From Desulfobacula sp. (GTDB lineage: Bacteria; Desulfobacterota; Desulfobacteria; Desulfobacterales; Desulfobacteraceae), in assembly GCF_014237455.1 (NCBI RefSeq), contig NZ_JABZFL010000068.1, positions 1 to 64,000 of the forward strand: a stretch of DNA of 64,000 bases, read 5' to 3'. Numbering within the stretch: the stretch's first letter is position 1; every line of letters starts with the position of its first letter. Shown here piece by piece: positions 55,241 through 63,575 of the stretch. Both the position numbers and the translations under genes were made by a program. Below the pieces are notes generated by a model. The model saw only the letters and a program-made list of their open reading frames with translations, did not search any database and was not told where the DNA came from.

Positions 55241-58200
55241 ATGGACCAGGCAAAAGTGTATAAAGCAGGCTTGGATATCGGCTCCACAACTGCGAAAATT
55301 GTTCTGCTGGATCAAAACAATACCCTTGTTTTTTCAGACTATCAGCGGCACCACGCAAAAATTTATGAGACGGCGATATTATTTTTTCATGATATTCTTG
55401 ATCAAAAGGGCGATTGCTTTCTGGATCTGAAGTTAACCGGGTCCGCAGCCTTGGGGGCTTCAAAAAAACTTGATTTTCCTTTTGTTCAGGAAGTGATCGC
55501 AACCAATGCTGCAATAAATAAAAAATATCCTGATGTCAGAACTGCCGTGGATATCGGCGGGGAAGATTCAAAAATCATTTTTTTAAATAAGGGCAAGCTG
55601 CCTGATATAAGGATGAATGGAAGCTGTGCAGGCGGGACAGGCAGTTTTATTGATCAAATGGCCACCCTGCTGGATATCACCCCTTTTCAATTAAATGCTC
55701 TGGCCGGATCCCATCATCATATCTATCCTGTGGCATCCCGGTGCGGTGTGTTTGCCAAAACCGATGTTCAGAATATGCTCAGCCGTAATATCTCCCACAA
55801 GGATATAGCCGCATCCATATTCCATGCAGTGGCGGTTCAATGTATCAATTCCCTTGCACGGGGAAAGGATATAAAACCCAAAATACTTTTATGCGGCGGT
55901 GTGTTCACGTTCCTTCCCGAGCTTGTGAACATGTTTTTGAGGATTTTGAACTTTTCTGATTCTGATATGGTGATGCCCGAAAGATCAGAACTTATACCGG
56001 CAATCGGTGCAGCCGTGTTTGACAAGTACCCGCCCCTTTCCATATCTGTCAGCCAGGTAATCAAAGATCTGAAAAAAGAACTTGAAAATCCGGAGCCGGT
56101 CAAGGATCGAATCGATCCCCTGTTTAAGAGTCAACACCATTTTCTGCACTGGAAAGAACAGTCTAAAACGATCCCCCTTCAAACCTGCACCATTGAAACC
56201 TATGGGGGAAAAGACTGTTTCCTCGGTATTGATTCGGGATCAACCACCACAAAGATCGTTATCATCGGGGAAAATAAGGAGATATTATTTTCCTGGTATG
56301 CAAATAATGGTGGAAACCCGATCAAGGCAGTAATTAAAGGCCTGGTTGAATTCAGAAAACAGGTTTTTGAACTCAACCCTGAGGTGAAAATTGTCAAAAG
56401 TGCTGTGGCAGGATATGGTGAGGATTTAATCAGGGCAGCATTTAATATTGATAAAGGGATTGTTGAAACCATTGCCCATTATACGGCGGCACAGTTTATC
56501 GATCCCAAGGTTTCATTTATCCTGGATATCGGCGGGCAGGATATGAAAGCTATTTTTATTGACCATGGGGTCATCAACCGGATCGAGGTGAACGAGGCCT
56601 GTTCTTCCGGATGCGGATCTTTTTTGGAAACCCTTGCCAATTCTTTAAATTATCGTATTGAGGAGTTCGCACGCCTTGCCTGCCACGCAAAGGAACCCTG
56701 TGATCTGGGTACCCGGTGTACGGTATTCATGAATTCAAAGATTAAGCAGTCTTTACGGGAAAATGCAGCAGTGGAAGATATCAGCGCAGGGTTGTCCTAC
56801 TCTGTGATCAAAAACTGTCTGTTTAAAGTCTTAAACCTTCAAGCCAATTCAGAAATGGGGGATCATATTGTGTTGCAGGGCGGGACGTTTAAAAATCCTT
56901 CTATTGTTCGGGCCCTGGAGCTGATGACGGGCAAGGCAGTGACATATTCTAAGATTCCTGAACTGATGGGTGCCTTTGGCGCAGCATTGGTTGCCTTTAA
57001 TGATGATGTGGCAGATCCTGCATCACAAACCGGTTTCCCGGGATTGTCAAAGCTTGAACACATTGACAGCTATCAAACAAGCCAGATGTCCTGCAAGGGG
57101 TGTGAAAACAATTGTGCAATAACCCGATTTGTTTTTTCTAATGGAAAGTCCTTTTTTTCCGGCAATAAGTGTGAAAAATACTATACTTCAAAGGAGCTTC
57201 AGCAAGACAGGGGATTTAATTTTATAAGGTATAAGAATGATCTGATTTTCAGTCGAGACCTTTCTCCCCATGATCACCCGGTGATGACCATCGGGATACC
57301 GCGATGTCTTAATTTTTATGAGAATTTTCCCTTCTGGCATGCACTTTTTACCCGCTGCGGGATCAATATCCAGCTGTCGCCGCCTTCCACCGTCAGTTTG
57401 AGTGAAAAGGGCATGGGAACAGTGATGTCTGATAATATCTGCTTTCCTGCCAAACTGGCGCATGGACATATTTATGAACTGGCTCAAAAAAAAGTGGACA
57501 GAATTTTTTATCCTATTGTGGTGTTTGAAAAAAAGGAATATGAACAGGCGGTAAATACCTACAATTGTCCCATCGTATCCAGCTATGCCGATGTAATTGA
57601 AAGTACCATCAATCCCGAAAAAAGATTTGGTATTCCTCTGGATAAACCTGTGGTGAACTTTAATGATGAAATCTTGTTGAGAAAAACCTGTGTTGCATAT
57701 TTAAAATTATTTAATATTAATACGCCACAAATTTATAAAGCGTTTGACGCAGCTCTTTCCGCCCAGAAAGAAGTTAAACACCAGATCAGAAACAAGGCCC
57801 TGAAAATCGTTGATCAGGCAGAGAAAAATAATTCCCTGCTCATTGTACTGGCCGGCAGACCCTATCATTCCGATGGACTGATAAACCATAAGATTCCTGA
57901 TATACTGACAGGCCTTGGCGCAGATATTATCACGGAGGATGCAATTCCTCCTGATTCTGAATCCCTTAAGGATGTTCAAGTGGTAACCCAGTGGTCCTAT
58001 CCCAACAGAATTTATAATGCGGCAAAATGGGTGGCTGAAAAACCGGATAACATTCAAATGATCCAGCTCAATTCATTTGGCTGCGGTCCGGATGCCGTCG
58101 TCACAGAAGAAGCAAAGGAAATTTTAAGGACCGGTCAAAAAAATCATACCCAGATAAAGGTGGATGAGATATCAAGCCCGGGATCTGTCCGGTTAAGACT

Positions 58201-59488
58201 GCGATCAATGGTGGAGTCATTAAAAGTAAAAAGACCGCAGAAAAGATCCGGGCCTGTCCTGAGAAAACCATTCTTAAGTTTTAGAAAAAAAGACAAGAAA
58301 AGAACCATTTGGGCTCCGTTTTTTGCAGAAGACTATTCTTCTTATCTGCCGGCAGTATTTAAAAACGCAGGCTATGAACTTAAAGTTCTTCCTAAACCGG
58401 ACAGACAATCCGTAGAACTGGGTCTGCAATATGCCAACAATGATATTTGTTATCCAGGGATTGTCGTGATCGGGGATATCATAAAAGCATTGAAATACAG
58501 CCAGTTTAATACCAATGAAATTGCCATTGGTATTACCCAGACCGGGGGGCAGTGCCGGGCATCCAACTATCTTTCATTGATCAGAAAAGCGATGATTGGA
58601 GCAGGGTTTGATGACATACCCATTATTTCTGTTACCACTTCCCAGGGATTGATTGATCAGCCCGGGTTTCACATCAACTGGCTGGGGAAGACCAAGATTC
58701 TGTTTGTGGGCACCATGTTTGCAGACTGCATTGCAAAAATGTATTATGCAACAGCTCCCAGGGAGAAAATAAAGGGCTTAAGTCAAAGCTTAAGACAGCA
58801 CTATATGAAAAAGGTCGGCAATTGTATTGTTACCCACAATTATCCCCAAATTTTCAGGATGCTGGAAAACGCCATTGATGCGTTTAATAAAATACCTGTT
58901 AATGAAAAACAATTGCCCCAAATGGGGATTGTGGGTGAGATATATGTAAAATACAATTATTTTTCAAACCAGCACCTGGTTCACTGGTTGATCAAGCAAG
59001 GCATTGAACCTGTCCTGCCGCCCATTATCGATTATTTTATCCAGGATCTTGTGAATTATAAAGAAAATATTAAGGCAGGAATACGTCATAGAAAACTCAC
59101 AGATGTTCTGGGGTTTCCCATTGAATGGATGTTAAACAGATACCATAAAAAGATAAATACACTGTTTTCAAGATTTAAATATTATTTACCCTTTGAAGAC
59201 ATAAAGCAGGTTGCCCGAAAAGCCTCAAAAATTTTGACCATGACCAATCAATTTGGGGAAGGGTGGCTTGTTCCGGGTGAAATTGCCACCTTTGCAGGAC
59301 AGGGCATTCATCATGTCATCAGCCTGCAGCCCTTTGGCTGTATTGCAAATCATATTATTTCCAAGGGTGTGGAAATAAAAATTAAATCTGTCTATCCTGA
59401 TATGAATCTTTATTATCTGGATTTTGATGCCGGGATGAGCGAAGCAAATGTCCGAAACAGGCTGCATTTTATGATCGAACACCTGTAA
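55241..59488 (+). CDS. Fused double-ATPase acyl-CoA dehydratase activase with HgdB-like part
   Basis: This 1415-residue protein joins two BadF/BadG/BcrA/BcrD-type ATPase domains and a 2-hydroxyacyl-CoA dehydratase-like part. ATPase 1 (about 1-265) starts GLDIGSTTAKIVLLD; ATPase 2 (about 325-590) starts GIDSGSTTTKIVIIG. In HgdC-type activases a [4Fe-4S] cluster is held by C127 and C166 of each subunit of a dimer; here C129/C168 and C454/C493 repeat that spacing twice, so one chain carries both halves. C618, C621 and C625 follow, then the DUF2229 and HgdB-like region. Such proteins use ATP to inject low-potential electrons. The substrate is unknown and no dehydratase genes are adjacent. AGGGGGC supports the ATG. 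Confidence 0.88.
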   Translation: MDQAKVYKAGLDIGSTTAKIVLLDQNNTLVFSDYQRHHAKIYETAILFFHDILDQKGDCFLDLKLTGSAALGASKKLDFPFVQEVIATNAAINKKYPDVRTAVDIGGEDSKIIFLNKGKLPDIRMNGSCAGGTGSFIDQMATLLDITPFQLNALAGSHHHIYPVASRCGVFAKTDVQNMLSRNISHKDIAASIFHAVAVQCINSLARGKDIKPKILLCGGVFTFLPELVNMFLRILNFSDSDMVMPERSELIPAIGAAVFDKYPPLSISVSQVIKDLKKELENPEPVKDRIDPLFKSQHHFLHWKEQSKTIPLQTCTIETYGGKDCFLGIDSGSTTTKIVIIGENKEILFSWYANNGGNPIKAVIKGLVEFRKQVFELNPEVKIVKSAVAGYGEDLIRAAFNIDKGIVETIAHYTAAQFIDPKVSFILDIGGQDMKAIFIDHGVINRIEVNEACSSGCGSFLETLANSLNYRIEEFARLACHAKEPCDLGTRCTVFMNSKIKQSLRENAAVEDISAGLSYSVIKNCLFKVLNLQANSEMGDHIVLQGGTFKNPSIVRALELMTGKAVTYSKIPELMGAFGAALVAFNDDVADPASQTGFPGLSKLEHIDSYQTSQMSCKGCENNCAITRFVFSNGKSFFSGNKCEKYYTSKELQQDRGFNFIRYKNDLIFSRDLSPHDHPVMTIGIPRCLNFYENFPFWHALFTRCGINIQLSPPSTVSLSEKGMGTVMSDNICFPAKLAHGHIYELAQKKVDRIFYPIVVFEKKEYEQAVNTYNCPIVSSYADVIESTINPEKRFGIPLDKPVVNFNDEILLRKTCVAYLKLFNINTPQIYKAFDAALSAQKEVKHQIRNKALKIVDQAEKNNSLLIVLAGRPYHSDGLINHKIPDILTGLGADIITEDAIPPDSESLKDVQVVTQWSYPNRIYNAAKWVAEKPDNIQMIQLNSFGCGPDAVVTEEAKEILRTGQKNHTQIKVDEISSPGSVRLRLRSMVESLKVKRPQKRSGPVLRKPFLSFRKKDKKRTIWAPFFAEDYSSYLPAVFKNAGYELKVLPKPDRQSVELGLQYANNDICYPGIVVIGDIIKALKYSQFNTNEIAIGITQTGGQCRASNYLSLIRKAMIGAGFDDIPIISVTTSQGLIDQPGFHINWLGKTKILFVGTMFADCIAKMYYATAPREKIKGLSQSLRQHYMKKVGNCIVTHNYPQIFRMLENAIDAFNKIPVNEKQLPQMGIVGEIYVKYNYFSNQHLVHWLIKQGIEPVLPPIIDYFIQDLVNYKENIKAGIRHRKLTDVLGFPIEWMLNRYHKKINTLFSRFKYYLPFEDIKQVARKASKILTMTNQFGEGWLVPGEIATFAGQGIHHVISLQPFGCIANHIISKGVEIKIKSVYPDMNLYYLDFDAGMSEANVRNRLHFMIEHL

Positions 59489-59576: not shown

Positions 59577-61067
59577 ATGACAGACCCAATTGATGATAAG
59601 GCTGATGATACTGCCAGTGATAATAAAGGCGATAATGCGGAAGAATTGAGCTTTGCCGAGCTTTTTGAATCATATGATACAAAAATAAGTCATGAACTGA
59701 ACCAGGGGGATAAAGTCGAGGGTGTGATTATCTCCATTGGTGATAAAAGCGTATATATTGATACGGGAACCAAAAGTGATGGTGTTGTGGGAAAAGCTGA
59801 GCTTTTGGATGAAAACGGTGAATTTCTGTATAAGGCCGGCGACAAAGTCACACTTTATGTGGTCTCATTAAGTGAGAGTGAAATTATATTGTCTAAAGCA
59901 CTGTCCGGTGCGGGAAAAGCAACCATGCTCAAAGAGGCATCCCAAACCAGAACACCTGTTGAAGGCAAAGTCACCGGTGTGATTAAAGGGGGCTTCTCCG
60001 TGGACATTATGGGGAAAAGAGCGTTTTGTCCTGTAAGCCAGATAGATGTTAAATATGTGGAAAACCAGGAAGACTATATCGGGCAGACCCATCATTTTTT
60101 AATTACTCGATTTGAAGAAAGCGGAAGAAATATTGTTGTATCAAGGCGAGATTTGCTGAATGAAGAGATAAAAGAAAAACAAAAAGTTTTTTTTGAAAAA
60201 GTAAAAGAAGGAGATACGGTTCAGGGCACCGTCACCAAGTTGATGCCTTATGGTGCCTTTATTGAACTGATTCCGGGTGTTGAGGGGATGGCACATATTT
60301 CAGAACTGTCCTGGTCCCGTATCGAAAAGGCACAAGAGGTTATTCAACCGGGTGATGTGATAAATGTGAAAGTGCTGAAGATAGAACCCTCAAAGGAATC
60401 AGACACCTTTAAAATTTCCCTGTCAATGAAACAGACATCATCCAATCCATGGGACAGCATGGGAAGCGCTTTTAATACCGGTGATCAAGTATCCGGAAAA
60501 GTGGTCAGACTGACGTCTTTCGGGGCATTTGTGGAAATCGCACCGGGTGTGGACGGCCTGGTTCATATCAGTGAAATGAGTCATACCAGAAGAGTCCTCA
60601 GGCCCGAGGATGTGGTTCAGGCGGGTGACAGTGTCCAGGTGGTGATCAAGTCGATTGATATGGACAGCAAAAGGATCTCGTTGAGTATCAAGGATGCTTT
60701 GGGGGACCCCTGGACCGGTGCGTCGGTCAGATATGAAGTCAATTCAGTTGTAGAAGGGCGTTTGAAAAAAAGAGAAAAATTCGGTCTTTTTATAATTCTT
60801 GAGCCGGGTGTGACAGGGTTGATGCCGGCATCCAATATCAGCAATGCGGCAAACCCTTCGGATTTTGAAAAATTAAAACCGGGAAGTTCGGTTCAGGTGA
60901 TGATCCAGGAGGTTGACGAGGATAAAAGAAGACTCACGCTGACATCGCCAGATCAAAAAGAGGGAGACAACTGGAAACAATTTGCAGGCAATGCAAAAAC
61001 AAAGACATCCGGAACCATGGAAAGCCTGTTTCTGGAGGCCATGAAAAAGAAAAAGGACACAAAATGA
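59577..61067 (+). CDS. rpsA: Ribosomal protein S1-like RNA-binding protein, five S1 domains
   Basis: The 496-residue product has an acidic N-terminal tail (residues 1-35) and five S1 (OB-fold) RNA-binding domains, at about 42-110, 125-195, 211-285, 302-375 and 388-460. Domains 3 and 4 are closest to the consensus ([20 protein letters not shown] and [20 protein letters not shown]). E. coli S1 has six domains; this is shorter, so it may be the main S1 or a second S1-like protein. AGGAGA precedes the ATG. Its stop overlaps the next gene by 4 bases. Confidence 0.82.
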
Positions 61068-62068
61068 ATTTTACCGGATTCCCCAGACGAAAATACCTTC
61101 AGGGCCCAACCCCCATTGAATTTTTGCCTGCATTGAGCAAGGTTCTTGGTAATGAGACAAACCTCTATGTTAAACGGGACGACCTGCTTCCCGGTGCTGG
61201 GGGCGGTAATAAAACAAGAAAACTTGAGTTCTGCATTGCCGATGCCATGGAACAAGGTGCGGACACCATCATTACCTGCGGGGCGGTTCAGTCAAATCAT
61301 GCCCGCCTTACTGCTGCATGGTCTGCCAAAGAAGGATTAGACTGCCATCTTATCCTTGAAGAGCGGGTCAAAGGATCATACAAGGAAGAGGCCAGCGGCA
61401 ATAATTTTCTATTTGAACTGCTGGACGTCAAAAGTATTGGCGTTGTCGAAGGCGGTTCCGATATGATGGCTGAGATGAACAAAAAGGCCGGTGAACTTGC
61501 GGCAGCCGGTAAAAAACCCTATATCATTCCAGGGGGTGCCTCCAATACAATCGGCGCCACAGGATATGCGGTCTGTGCCGAAGAAACCATGACCCAGTTA
61601 AATGAGATGCGGTTAAAAATTGATCATATTGTTGTGCCTTCCGGTTCTGCCGGAACCCATGCAGGAATGGTGGTGGGTATGACCGGTGTGAACGGTAACA
61701 TCCCCATCAACGGCGTAAACGTATCCAGAACTAAAGATGTTCAGGAAGAAATTGTTTACAAGCTGGCTGTAGATACCGCCGAAAGACTTGACGTAAAAAC
61801 AGGGATTGAGCGTGACGATATTGTCTGCTTTGATCAGTATGTCGGGCCCGGTTATTCCCTTCCAACAGATGCCATGGTCGAAGCCGTAAAACTGTTTGCC
61901 AGAACTGAAGCGATTCTCCTTGACCCTGTGTATTCCGGTAAAGCTGCTGCAGGACTTATTGATTTTGTTCGCAACGGCCATTTTTCAAAAGGGTCAAATG
62001 TTCTGTTCCTTCACACCGGCGGATCTCCTGCATTGTACGCATATATGGATACCTTCAGACAGAAATAG
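61064..62068 (+). CDS. dcyD: D-cysteine desulfhydrase-family PLP enzyme
   Basis: The 334-residue fold-II PLP enzyme resembles D-cysteine desulfhydrase, which splits D-cysteine into pyruvate, ammonia and sulfide. The PLP lysine is K50 in [40 protein letters not shown] and [13 protein letters not shown] are family hallmarks. L-cysteate sulfo-lyase (CuyA), a close relative, cannot be excluded, and would fit a sulfonate-using organism. ACC deaminase is less likely. The ATG overlaps the S1 gene stop (ATGA) with AAAGGA inside that gene. The racemase gene follows without a gap. Confidence 0.8.
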
Positions 62069-62779
62069 ATGACAGTGGAAAAAGAAAAAACAGTTGGGAT
62101 TTTAGGGGGTATGGGCCCGGAAGCCACTGTGGATCTTATGCAGCGTATTATACGACTGACGCCGGCGTTGGATGATATTGATCATATCCGGTGTCTTGTG
62201 GATAACAATCCCAAGGTTCCTTCCAGAATAAAAGCCATTATTGAAGGAGAAGGAGAAGACCCGGGCCCGTGTATGGTGGATATGGCCCGTCGGCTTGAAT
62301 CATGGGGGGCAGACTTCCTGGCGATTGCATGTAATACCGCTCACAATTATTATGATGCGGTTTCCAAAGCCGTTAAAATACCGGTGATTAACCTCATAGA
62401 TCTTGTTGTTTTCCACGTAAAACAAACCAGGCCGGAGTGCAGTAAAATAGGCATACTTGCCTCCCCGGCGGTGCGCATGACAGGGTTGTATGACAACCGA
62501 TTTCATTCGGCTGGAATAGAGGTTGTCTATCCAGGCCCTGTTTTTCAGGAAAGGCTTTTTAACGTCATTAAGGCGATTAAAACAGGGGACACATCTGTGG
62601 AAGTCGTCCAAACGTATAAAGGCATTTGTGAAAATCTTAATTCATCCGGTGTGGAGTCTGCCATCATCGCCTGCACAGAACTTAGCGTCATCACTTGTGA
62701 TCTTCCCTTTGAAAGTATAGATTCCACTGAAATTCTGGCCCGGGAAATAGTTGATCTTGCCAAAGGGATAAAACAGTAA
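62069..62779 (+). CDS. Aspartate/glutamate racemase family protein
   Basis: The 236-residue product belongs to the cofactor-independent two-cysteine racemases. The catalytic pair is C88 (AIACNTAHNYY) and C202 (IIACTELSVI), and the start VGILGGMGPEATVDLMQRI is typical of the aspartate racemase/YgeA branch. The substrate may be aspartate or a broader set of amino acids. It starts at the base after the dcyD stop, so both enzymes come from one transcript, which suggests linked D-amino acid use (inference). Confidence 0.88.
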   Translation: MTVEKEKTVGILGGMGPEATVDLMQRIIRLTPALDDIDHIRCLVDNNPKVPSRIKAIIEGEGEDPGPCMVDMARRLESWGADFLAIACNTAHNYYDAVSKAVKIPVINLIDLVVFHVKQTRPECSKIGILASPAVRMTGLYDNRFHSAGIEVVYPGPVFQERLFNVIKAIKTGDTSVEVVQTYKGICENLNSSGVESAIIACTELSVITCDLPFESIDSTEILAREIVDLAKGIKQ

Positions 62780-62786
62780 AAGCCGA

Positions 62787-63575
62787 TCAGGCAAAATCAC
62801 TGACGATGACAGGTTCTCCCCATAGTTTTTCAAACAACAGCGCTGTTTTTTCATGAATATTGCTGCTTAAAAATTTTGTATCTCCATCTTTAGTGTTCGA
62901 TGTCAATAAATTATTTATATTGAGTTGCCTTGACGCCTCTGTTGCAACGGCTTGATACGTATTTATTATCTTTAACTCATTCCCCATTATTTCTCTTAAT
63001 ATTTTTGTCAGAAACGCAAAATGTGTACAGCCCATAACAATAGTATCCGCTCCTTTTTCTACCAACGGCATCACATATCTCTCTAGCATGCATCTAATTT
63101 CGTACCCCTCAAATTTATGAGTTTCCATTAGTTCCACCAGCCCTGGGCATGATTGTGTTTCAATGTGAGCTTCATCGGAAAATCGGTTGACTAAATTTCT
63201 AAATGATACGCTGTTTACTGTTTGTTCTGTAGCCAGTACGCCAATAGTACCGCTCTTACTTGCAGCCACGGCGGGTTTGATTCCCGGCTCAACCCCTATA
63301 ATCGGGAGTGAGTAAGTGTTGCGCAGCATAGCAATGGCACTGACTGTAGCGGTATTACATGCGACAACGACTGCTTTGGCTTTCATGCCGATTAAGTGAT
63401 CAATAATATAAGAGGATCGCATGGAAATAAACTTGTCAGATTTATCTCCATAAGGCGCATTTAATGAGTCCGCCATATAAACGATATCTTCATTCGGCAG
63501 TTCTTCCCTTATGCTTCGCGCAACCGATAGCCCGCCGACACCTGAGTCAAATATTCCTATAGGATTGTTATTCAT
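62787..63575 (-). CDS. murI: Glutamate racemase
   Basis: MurI makes D-glutamate for peptidoglycan. The 262-residue product starts PIGIFDSGVGGLSVARSI, with YMADSLNAPYGDKS, and has the catalytic cysteines C73 (VVACNTATVSA) and C183 (VMGCTHFAFL). It is convergent with the aspartate racemase-family gene, stops 7 bases apart. The region upstream of its start contains the interleaved inverted repeats at 63590-63710. Confidence 0.95.
   Translation of the reverse strand: MNNNPIGIFDSGVGGLSVARSIREELPNEDIVYMADSLNAPYGDKSDKFISMRSSYIIDHLIGMKAKAVVVACNTATVSAIAMLRNTYSLPIIGVEPGIKPAVAASKSGTIGVLATEQTVNSVSFRNLVNRFSDEAHIETQSCPGLVELMETHKFEGYEIRCMLERYVMPLVEKGADTIVMGCTHFAFLTKILREIMGNELKIINTYQAVATEASRQLNINNLLTSNTKDGDTKFLSSNIHEKTALLFEKLWGEPVIVSDFA

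What the first reader, a model, noticed from the sequence alone, without database searches (positions are those of the whole stretch)
55241..59488. One chain holding both halves of a two-ATPase, cluster-bridged activase
The cysteine pairs C129/C168 and C454/C493 keep the 39-residue spacing of HgdC-type activases (C127/C166). In those, one [4Fe-4S] cluster bridges a homodimer; here a single protein supplies all four ligands, then adds a cysteine cluster and an HgdB-like part. The family is widespread but, to my knowledge, its reaction is not established. There are no dehydratase subunit genes next to it.
Basis: partly seen in the sequence, partly recalled or inferred. Interest (0 to 1): 0.5.

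Follow-up and report, generated by a model that had tools for sequence, protein, structure and literature searches.

The report
One-chain ATP-driven ether-lipid enzyme (PlsA/Ger)
This gene most likely encodes a known kind of enzyme of oxygen-free life that spends ATP to turn the ester bonds of membrane lipids into ether bonds, and it carries in one chain the iron-sulphur parts that related enzymes spread over three or four proteins.

Summary
The ORF at 55241-59488 encodes 1415 aa with two complete activase halves. Their cysteine pairs C129/C168 and C454/C493 keep the 39-residue spacing and are cysteine in 132 of 132 aligned rows. A four-cysteine linker (C618/C621/C625/C644) and two homologous reductase modules, three conserved cysteines each, follow.

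One chain with both activase halves is well supported, but I could not measure whether the four cysteines meet. The family's reaction is not unknown. The protein is collinear with a two-gene version in Clostridiaceae: residues 7-998 with a 993-aa protein (40.6%), 1007-1412 with a 422-aa protein (29.8%). That is the published plsA-plsR (plasmalogen synthase) layout, and both fall in one clade with support 1.0. PlsA/PlsR and the PlsA-like glycerol ester reductase (Ger) make vinyl-ether or alkyl-ether lipids in E. coli (passages of papers).

So this is a new member of a known kind. Which ether it makes, and why this genome holds three such paralogues, is open. Low to moderate interest.

The parts
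55241..59488 (+). whole gene, 1415 aa, PlsA-PlsR/Ger-type fused ATP-dependent reductase
   Evidence: collinearity with the split pair; clade
55253..56038 (+). Act1: N-terminal activase (ASKHA ATPase) half, residues 5-266
   Evidence: Pfam BcrAD_BadFG 111.8 bits on residues 1-260 alone; HgdC 1hux Z 28.6
55625..55627 (+). C129, proposed bridging-cluster ligand
   Evidence: 132 of 132 rows
55742..55744 (+). C168, proposed bridging-cluster ligand
   Evidence: 132 of 132 rows
56210..57019 (+). Act2: second activase half, residues 324-593
   Evidence: Pfam best stretch 328-585; MbdQ 9gai_D Z 28.0, HadI 4ehu_B Z 27.8
56600..56602 (+). C454, proposed bridging-cluster ligand; C458 (56612-56614) is invariant in the PlsA clade
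   Evidence: C454 132 of 132; C458 112 of 112 in the clade; C458 is C in 12 and T in 20 of 32 rows
56717..56719 (+). C493, proposed bridging-cluster ligand
   Evidence: 132 of 132 rows
57092..57172 (+). four-cysteine linker C618-x2-C621-x3-C625-x18-C644, proposed extra Fe-S site
   Evidence: 131 of 132 rows for each of the four; L061 lacks the segment
57239..58231 (+). Red1 (DUF2229), residues 667-997, C734/C776/C948
   Evidence: Pfam DUF2229 683-902; fold match to chains of HadBC, DCCP and BzdNO, best Z 14.9, 14.7 and 14.2; cysteines 132 of 132
58283..59485 (+). Red2 (equivalent of PlsR), residues 1015-1415, C1070/C1105/C1367
   Evidence: homologous to Red1: hhalign probability 91.4, E 9.1e-7; 29.8% to a split second ORF; cysteines 131, 131 and 130 of 132

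Best explanation
The gene encodes a fused plasmalogen synthase / glycerol ester reductase (PlsA-PlsR or Ger type). Two activase halves in one chain are proposed to hold one [4Fe-4S] cluster between C129, C168, C454 and C493. A low-potential donor (ferredoxin or the like, inferred) reduces it, perhaps by way of the C618-C644 site. ATP at both halves then drives one electron at a time into the reductase part, where Red1 and Red2 each hold a three-cysteine cluster with an open iron site. There the ester carbonyl of a membrane glycerophospholipid is reduced and water is lost, giving a vinyl ether (plasmalogen) or, with further reduction, an alkyl ether. Shown here: anatomy, conservation, fold of Act1, Act2 and Red1, Red1-Red2 homology, collinearity and clade with the split two-gene layout. 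From the literature: the reaction of the family. Inferred: cluster types and their order, the electron donor, the lipid substrate of this copy, and which ether it makes.
For: Both activase halves and DUF2229. In Clostridiaceae 192 of 206 genomes match the protein at E <= 1e-40. Of 16 genomes that I picked there for having two weaker matches, 13 hold two adjacent ORFs on one contig (first 957-993 aa; second 413-455 aa in 12 and 325 aa in one); the other 3 are cut by contig ends. In the 12 complete pairs the matched stretch spans 4129-4198 bp; the C. perfringens plsA-plsR fragment is quoted as 4,199 bp. Identity 40.6% to one split first ORF and 29.8% to its second. The clade of 112 rows that joins window type, fused Bacillota type and split type has support 1.0. 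In facultative anaerobes PlsA and PlsR form a single ORF. D. alkenivorans ger alone gives mono- and dialkyl ethers in E. coli; bacterial plsA genes give plasmalogens in E. coli. A TetR-type regulator lies just upstream of pls in E. faecalis; TetR_N occurs in 4 of 23 scanned immediate upstream genes of the window's branch and upstream of the 49% paralogue here. All 14 proposed ligand cysteines are kept in 112 of 112 clade rows.
Against: Identity to the split version is only 40% and 30%, and a family member can be silent: D. alkenivorans Ger2 gave no ether in E. coli. Neither characterised Ger (D. alkenivorans, T. maritima) nor C. perfringens PlsA could be fetched by name, so placement rests on gene layout and published sizes. 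No lipid gene lies beside it: neighbours are uvrB/uvrC-like and S1-like genes (by eye), and the same S1-like family recurs in only 6 of 87 neighbourhoods. The HAD/BCR link of the reductase is weak by sequence: PDB profile search 0 hits at E <= 1; hhalign to this genome's own HGD-D proteins probability 2.9 and 0.4. By Foldseek only 6 chains reach E <= 0.001, best 1.7e-4, one of them NifEN. Red2 has no match above the background (best Z 7.4).
Confidence: 0.82

Rival explanations
1. It is a 2-hydroxyacyl-CoA dehydratase or benzoyl-CoA-reductase-like enzyme acting on a CoA ester, with activase and dehydratase fused.
For: Activase halves match HgdC, HadI, MbdQ; Red1 fold matches chains of HadBC, BzdNO, DCCP; NCBIfam acyl-CoA dehydratase activase domain.
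Against: The HGD-D model does not hit it, while it does hit the two classical operons of the same genome. It shares a clade with the two-gene plsA-plsR layout, for which lipid-ether products are published.
Confidence: 0.07
2. It is an electron activase or reductase for another target (for example small molecules, as reported for DCCP), drifted from lipid work after duplication; this genome has three full-length paralogues.
For: Paralogues at C69 (49%) and C109 (27%). In the tree the C109 type lies outside the PlsA clade. In the order a match at E <= 1e-130 was found in 50 of 340 genomes (only two candidates scored per genome, so a lower bound): the gene is accessory. Ger2 of D. alkenivorans was inactive.
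Against: In its clade all 14 cysteines are kept in 112 of 112 rows and both ATP motifs wherever the segment is present. That argues against drift of the core machine, though not against a new substrate.
Confidence: 0.1
3. Broken or silent copy.
For: Copies in three genomes of the same genus show stops inside a match (G012 two TAA; G013 one TGA; G016 one TGA and one TAA in a piece).
Against: The window copy is open over 1415 codons; near copies in G006 (94%) and G011 (92%) are open too.
Confidence: 0.01

Closest known systems
PlsA-PlsR plasmalogen synthase (C. perfringens two-gene form; one ORF in facultative anaerobes; PMC12838417, PMC9702350)
   Same: Order Act1-Act2-linker-Red1-Red2; collinear with the split pair; same clade, support 1.0; one-ORF forms already published
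   Different: Sister branch with Bacteroidales, Brachyspira and Desulfobacterales members; 40% and 30% identity to a split pair; product untested
Ger, glycerol ester reductase (Desulfatibacillum alkenivorans, Thermotoga maritima; PMC11150832, PMC13274423)
   Same: PlsA homologue with two activation domains, 159 kDa in D. alkenivorans; the window protein computes to 158.6 kDa; D. alkenivorans is a sulphate reducer too
   Different: Sequence could not be fetched; the papers say PlsA and Ger cannot at present be told apart by sequence
HgdC/HadI, BcrAD/BzdPQ/MbdPQ activases
   Same: Fold, ATP motifs, two cysteines per half 39 apart
   Different: Those are two chains (homodimer or heterodimer); here one chain with a linker and reductase attached
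HadBC, BzdNO, DCCP
   Same: Fold of Red1 (best Z 14.9, 14.2 and 14.7); two homologous modules; three-cysteine sites as in BzdO
   Different: No HGD-D match; extra four-cysteine linker; no six-cysteine set inside either module

Membership tests
PlsA/PlsR-Ger | two activation domains plus two reduction/dehydration domains in this order | tested here: met
   for Act1, Act2, Red1; Red2 by homology to Red1
PlsA/PlsR-Ger | full-length collinearity and clade with the plsA-plsR layout | tested here: met
PlsA/PlsR-Ger | clade with named, assayed PlsA or Ger sequences | not testable with these tools
   none of the 80 named loci kept by the single genome-contig scan is an assayed enzyme that I know of, and no second scan was allowed
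PlsA/PlsR-Ger | makes vinyl-ether or alkyl-ether glycerolipids | not testable with these tools
   needs expression and lipid analysis
HgdC-type activase | BcrAD_BadFG fold with two conserved cysteines 39 apart and GxDxGSTxxK / DIGGxDxK motifs in each half | tested here: met
HgdC-type activase | one [4Fe-4S] cluster bridging two ATPase lobes | not testable with these tools
   cysteines conserved, model confident, but coordinates are not returned and clusters are not modelled
2-hydroxyacyl-CoA dehydratase (HGD-D, PF06050) | match to the HGD-D family model | tested here: not met
   PF06050 in this genome hits C85 and C5 only; Pfam scan of the protein at E <= 1 without it
DCCP (double-cubane protein) | six cysteines per subunit for a double-cubane cluster | tested here: inconclusive
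   inside each module three cysteines are conserved in 112 of 112 clade rows (and column 1361 in 92 of 112); but the DCCP match starts in the linker (model residue 23), so four linker plus three Red1 cysteines could in principle serve one larger cluster

The most novel reading that the evidence does not exclude
The window's branch is a complete one-chain ATP-driven electron pump and ester reductase with a 4 + 4 + 3 + 3 cysteine plan, in which the linker four form an extra relay cluster or even complete a second cubane beside Red1. Sulphate reducers that keep two members of this clade (window gene and the 49% paralogue) plus the outlying 27% paralogue divide the work, for example sn-1 against sn-2 esters, or vinyl against alkyl ethers. 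Paralogues of the outlying kinds have a degenerate first ATP site and would run on one ATP site per cycle.
Probability: 0.15. Interest if true: 0.5.

Novelty: new member of a known kind. Interest (0 to 1): 0.23.

Why it matters
Ether lipids of anaerobic bacteria are used as sediment biomarkers, and the papers consulted say that sequence alone cannot yet tell plasmalogen-making PlsA from alkyl-ether-making Ger (passages). This genome, with two clade members and one outlier, and the clade features found here (invariant C458, two intact ATP sites) offer concrete sequence marks to test. It also takes one 'unknown activase' off the list: names such as 'CoA enzyme activase' for these 1400-aa proteins probably point to the wrong substrate.

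Tried and rejected
Tried without result: viral-contig scan with the protein (none). PDB profile search with the reductase part (0 of 177,635 sequences at E <= 1). hhalign of Red1 and Red2 (24 of 74 usable relatives plus the window) against this genome's four HGD-D proteins (probabilities 2.9 and 0.4, although C948 lines up with the third HGD-D cysteine). Red2 fold: barely tested.

Rejected: using the published trend 'one activation domain with plasmalogens, two with alkyl ethers' to call the product. In my scans the seven proteins (C. algoriphilum, a split first ORF, Blautia, Bacteroides, the 49% and 27% paralogues, one outlying type) and the window all show two stretches of the activase model. 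Weak only: the >30% identity cut-off used for Ger in Bacillota fits the PlsA clade (window and 49% paralogue 38.5-46.6% to the three fused sequences compared) better than the other types (22.8-28.5% to these, 26-31% to the split first ORF), but that is inference. Rejected: gene neighbourhood as functional evidence; TetR in 4 of 23 (the upstream genes of the window, L051 and L060 were not given), and TetR is not among the 25 of 59 families shown for 47 upstream genes of the other branch.

The papers on plsA (Jackson 2021), ger (Sahonero-Canavesi 2022), DCCP (two) and selenoproteins (Haft and Gwadz) are not held; what is said of them comes from passages of papers that cite them. I found no paper on this locus in searches (CC-licensed PMC only), and no solved relative of the reductase part by sequence.
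Full report
WHAT IS THERE. The ORF at 55241-59488 (+) is open for 1415 codons. Pfam gives BcrAD_BadFG twice (halves 110.9 and 138 bits against a cut-off of 31.5) and DUF2229 at 683-902. phmmer against the PDB lists seven sequences: five activases for the front half (HadI 4eht, HgdC 1hux, MbdQ and MbdP of 9gai, the DCCP partner 7yyl_E) and two weak cytochrome rows (E 0.02) that I ignore. Its alignments put C454 and C493 on the two conserved cysteines of HgdC and HadI.

CONSERVATION. In 32 full-length rows from the order (window included), C129, C168, C454 and C493 are 32 of 32; C618, C621, C625 and C644 are 31, 30, 31 and 31; C734, C776 and C948 are 32; C1070 and C1105 31; C1367 30. A wider set has 132 rows: 122 full-length proteins plus ten joined split pairs. 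Of 89 partial ORFs found, 20 went into the pairs and 69 were left out. There the four bridging cysteines are 132 of 132, and all 14 proposed ligands are 112 of 112 in the PlsA clade. A further cysteine, C458, is 112 of 112 in the clade; it is C in 12 and T in 20 of 32 rows, which are the numbers of clade and outlying rows there.

TWO ATP SITES. In the clade the first-half residues D12, K19, D109 and K111 are kept in 28 of 28 rows of the window's branch and in 82 or 83 of 84 of the other, the rest being gaps. In the 20 outlying rows K19 is kept in 1 and D109 in 2. The second-half site is kept in 19 or 20 of these 20. So clade members should have two working ATP sites, and most outlying paralogues one. 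This is inferred from motifs only.

FOLD. AlphaFold2 on residues 1-690 (window plus 70 of 74 usable relatives): pLDDT 88.8, pTM 0.83. Residues 5-266 match HgdC with Z 28.6, and 324-592 MbdQ with Z 28.0. Residues 600-1415: pLDDT 90.5, pTM 0.89, lowest in the linker region (ten-residue blocks from 51 to 80 over the first 60 residues). Residues about 667-997 match 3o3m_D of 2-hydroxyisocaproyl-CoA dehydratase (Z 14.9, rmsd 4.0, 274 aligned), DCCP 6eno (14.7) and BzdNO 8s02_B (14.2); unrelated rows start at 7.4. Foldseek itself is weaker: 6 chains at E <= 0.001, best 1.7e-4, one of them NifEN. Red1 and Red2 are homologous (hhalign probability 91.4, E 9.1e-7, with C734 on C1070 and C776 on C1105). 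The Red2 spacing C1070-C1105-C1367 (35 and 262) resembles the BzdO ligands Cys95, Cys128 and Cys380 (33 and 252) quoted in PMC11971306 (passages); this is a resemblance, not a test. Coordinates are not returned, so the bridge itself was not measured.

WHAT FAMILY. In Clostridiaceae 192 of 206 genomes match at E <= 1e-40. Of 16 picked for two weaker matches, 13 hold two adjacent ORFs on one contig (957-993 aa; 413-455 aa, in one case 325 aa), the first covering about residues 6-997, the second about 1000-1413; 3 are cut by contig ends. That is the plsA-plsR layout: PMC12838417 (passages) describes a 4,199-bp two-gene fragment from C. perfringens and single ORFs in facultative anaerobes; the 12 complete pairs here span 4129-4198 bp of match. 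The tree (FastTree, midpoint-rooted; printout cut at its end) joins the window's branch (28 rows) and the other branch (84 rows, mostly Bacillota, with the split pairs and one Desulfobacterales row, L057) in one clade with support 1.0; each branch also has 1.0. Nine of the ten split pairs form one group (support 1.0); the tenth lies among fused Clostridium rows.

WHAT IT DOES. PMC9702350 and PMC10191378 (passages): PlsA and PlsR turn the sn-1 acyl ester into a vinyl ether; homologues occur in about 15% of sequenced Bacteroidota. PMC11150832 (passages): D. alkenivorans Ger alone gives mono- and dialkyl glycerol ethers in anaerobic E. coli; its relative Ger2 gave none. PMC13274423 (passages): PlsA homologues with two activation domains were validated as Ger by heterologous expression, and Ger and PlsA cannot be assigned by sequence alone; PMC11868695 says the same (passages). 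PMC8788747 (passages) names Tmari_0479. So 'reaction not established' does not hold at family level. For this gene it is an inference.

PARALOGUES AND SPREAD. The genome has two more full-length copies, C69 (49%) and C109 (27%), and two classical activase plus HGD-D operons on C85 and C5. Of 26 genomes of the genus (window's included) I count 13 with a match of 45% or more, whole or in pieces (read by eye); three of these show stops in a match. In 340 genomes drawn from the order, 50 match at E <= 1e-130, two candidates scored per genome: by my count 36 at 37% or better and 14 at 28-31%. The gene is patchy. One genome of the genus is a contig of 5,197,905 bases, which I recall as the size of Desulfobacula toluolica Tol2; that is memory, not a test.

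NEIGHBOURS. uvrB-like and uvrC-like genes upstream, an S1-like gene 89 bp downstream (names by eye; distance). The 49% paralogue has an ABC_trans_CmpB/HD gene and a TetR gene upstream. TetR_N occurs in 4 of 23 scanned immediate upstream genes of the window's branch; pls of E. faecalis also has a TetR-type regulator upstream. Weak support.

MECHANISM. Shown: anatomy, conservation, folds of three of four modules, Red1-Red2 homology, clade. Literature: ATP-driven reduction in the HAD/BCR family and lipid-ether products for PlsA/Ger. Inferred: donor to linker or bridging cluster; ATP at both lobes; electrons to Red1 and Red2; ester reduced and dehydrated.

VERDICT. A sound observation of a protein whose kind is already known. 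What I add is the 4+4+3+3 cysteine plan across the clade, C458, and the contrast of two against one intact ATP site between paralogues. Interest 0.23.

Noticed in passing
L048 (G000:C109) and other outlying types such as L035, L036, L044, L062: Full-length paralogues outside the PlsA clade mostly have a degenerate first ATP site (K19 kept in 1 of 20, D109 in 2 of 20) while nearly all cysteines stay; they may be one-ATP-site versions.
   Followed up: partly
window 56612-56614 (C458): A cysteine four residues after bridging ligand C454 is invariant in 112 of 112 PlsA-clade rows; it is T in 20 of 32 rows: a possible clade mark.
   Followed up: partly
L163-L168, L173-L176: Several Clostridia carry separate DUF2229 ORFs (about 300-350 aa) with a ~370-390 aa partner beside them and, in L176, an activase ORF nearby: possible unfused relatives of the same machine.
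   Followed up: partly
L047:1048-12270: The 49% paralogue follows a TetR gene and a CmpB/HD membrane gene, with two phage-integrase-type genes and a pRiA4 ORF-3-like gene further upstream: it may be mobile or acquired.
   Followed up: partly
L020 (G012), L030 (G013), G016:C157: In three genomes of the same genus the window-type match contains stops: decayed copies or assembly errors.
   Followed up: no
window 61064-63575: Downstream: a PLP-dependent enzyme of the PALP family, then an aspartate/glutamate-racemase-like and, on the other strand, a glutamate-racemase-like ORF (by eye).
   Followed up: no
L049:6250-9420 and L050:6798-9881: Two classical three-gene operons, activase plus two HGD-D subunits; one subunit of the first is a close HadBC alpha-subunit relative (E 2.4e-73 to 3o3m_A).
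   Followed up: partly
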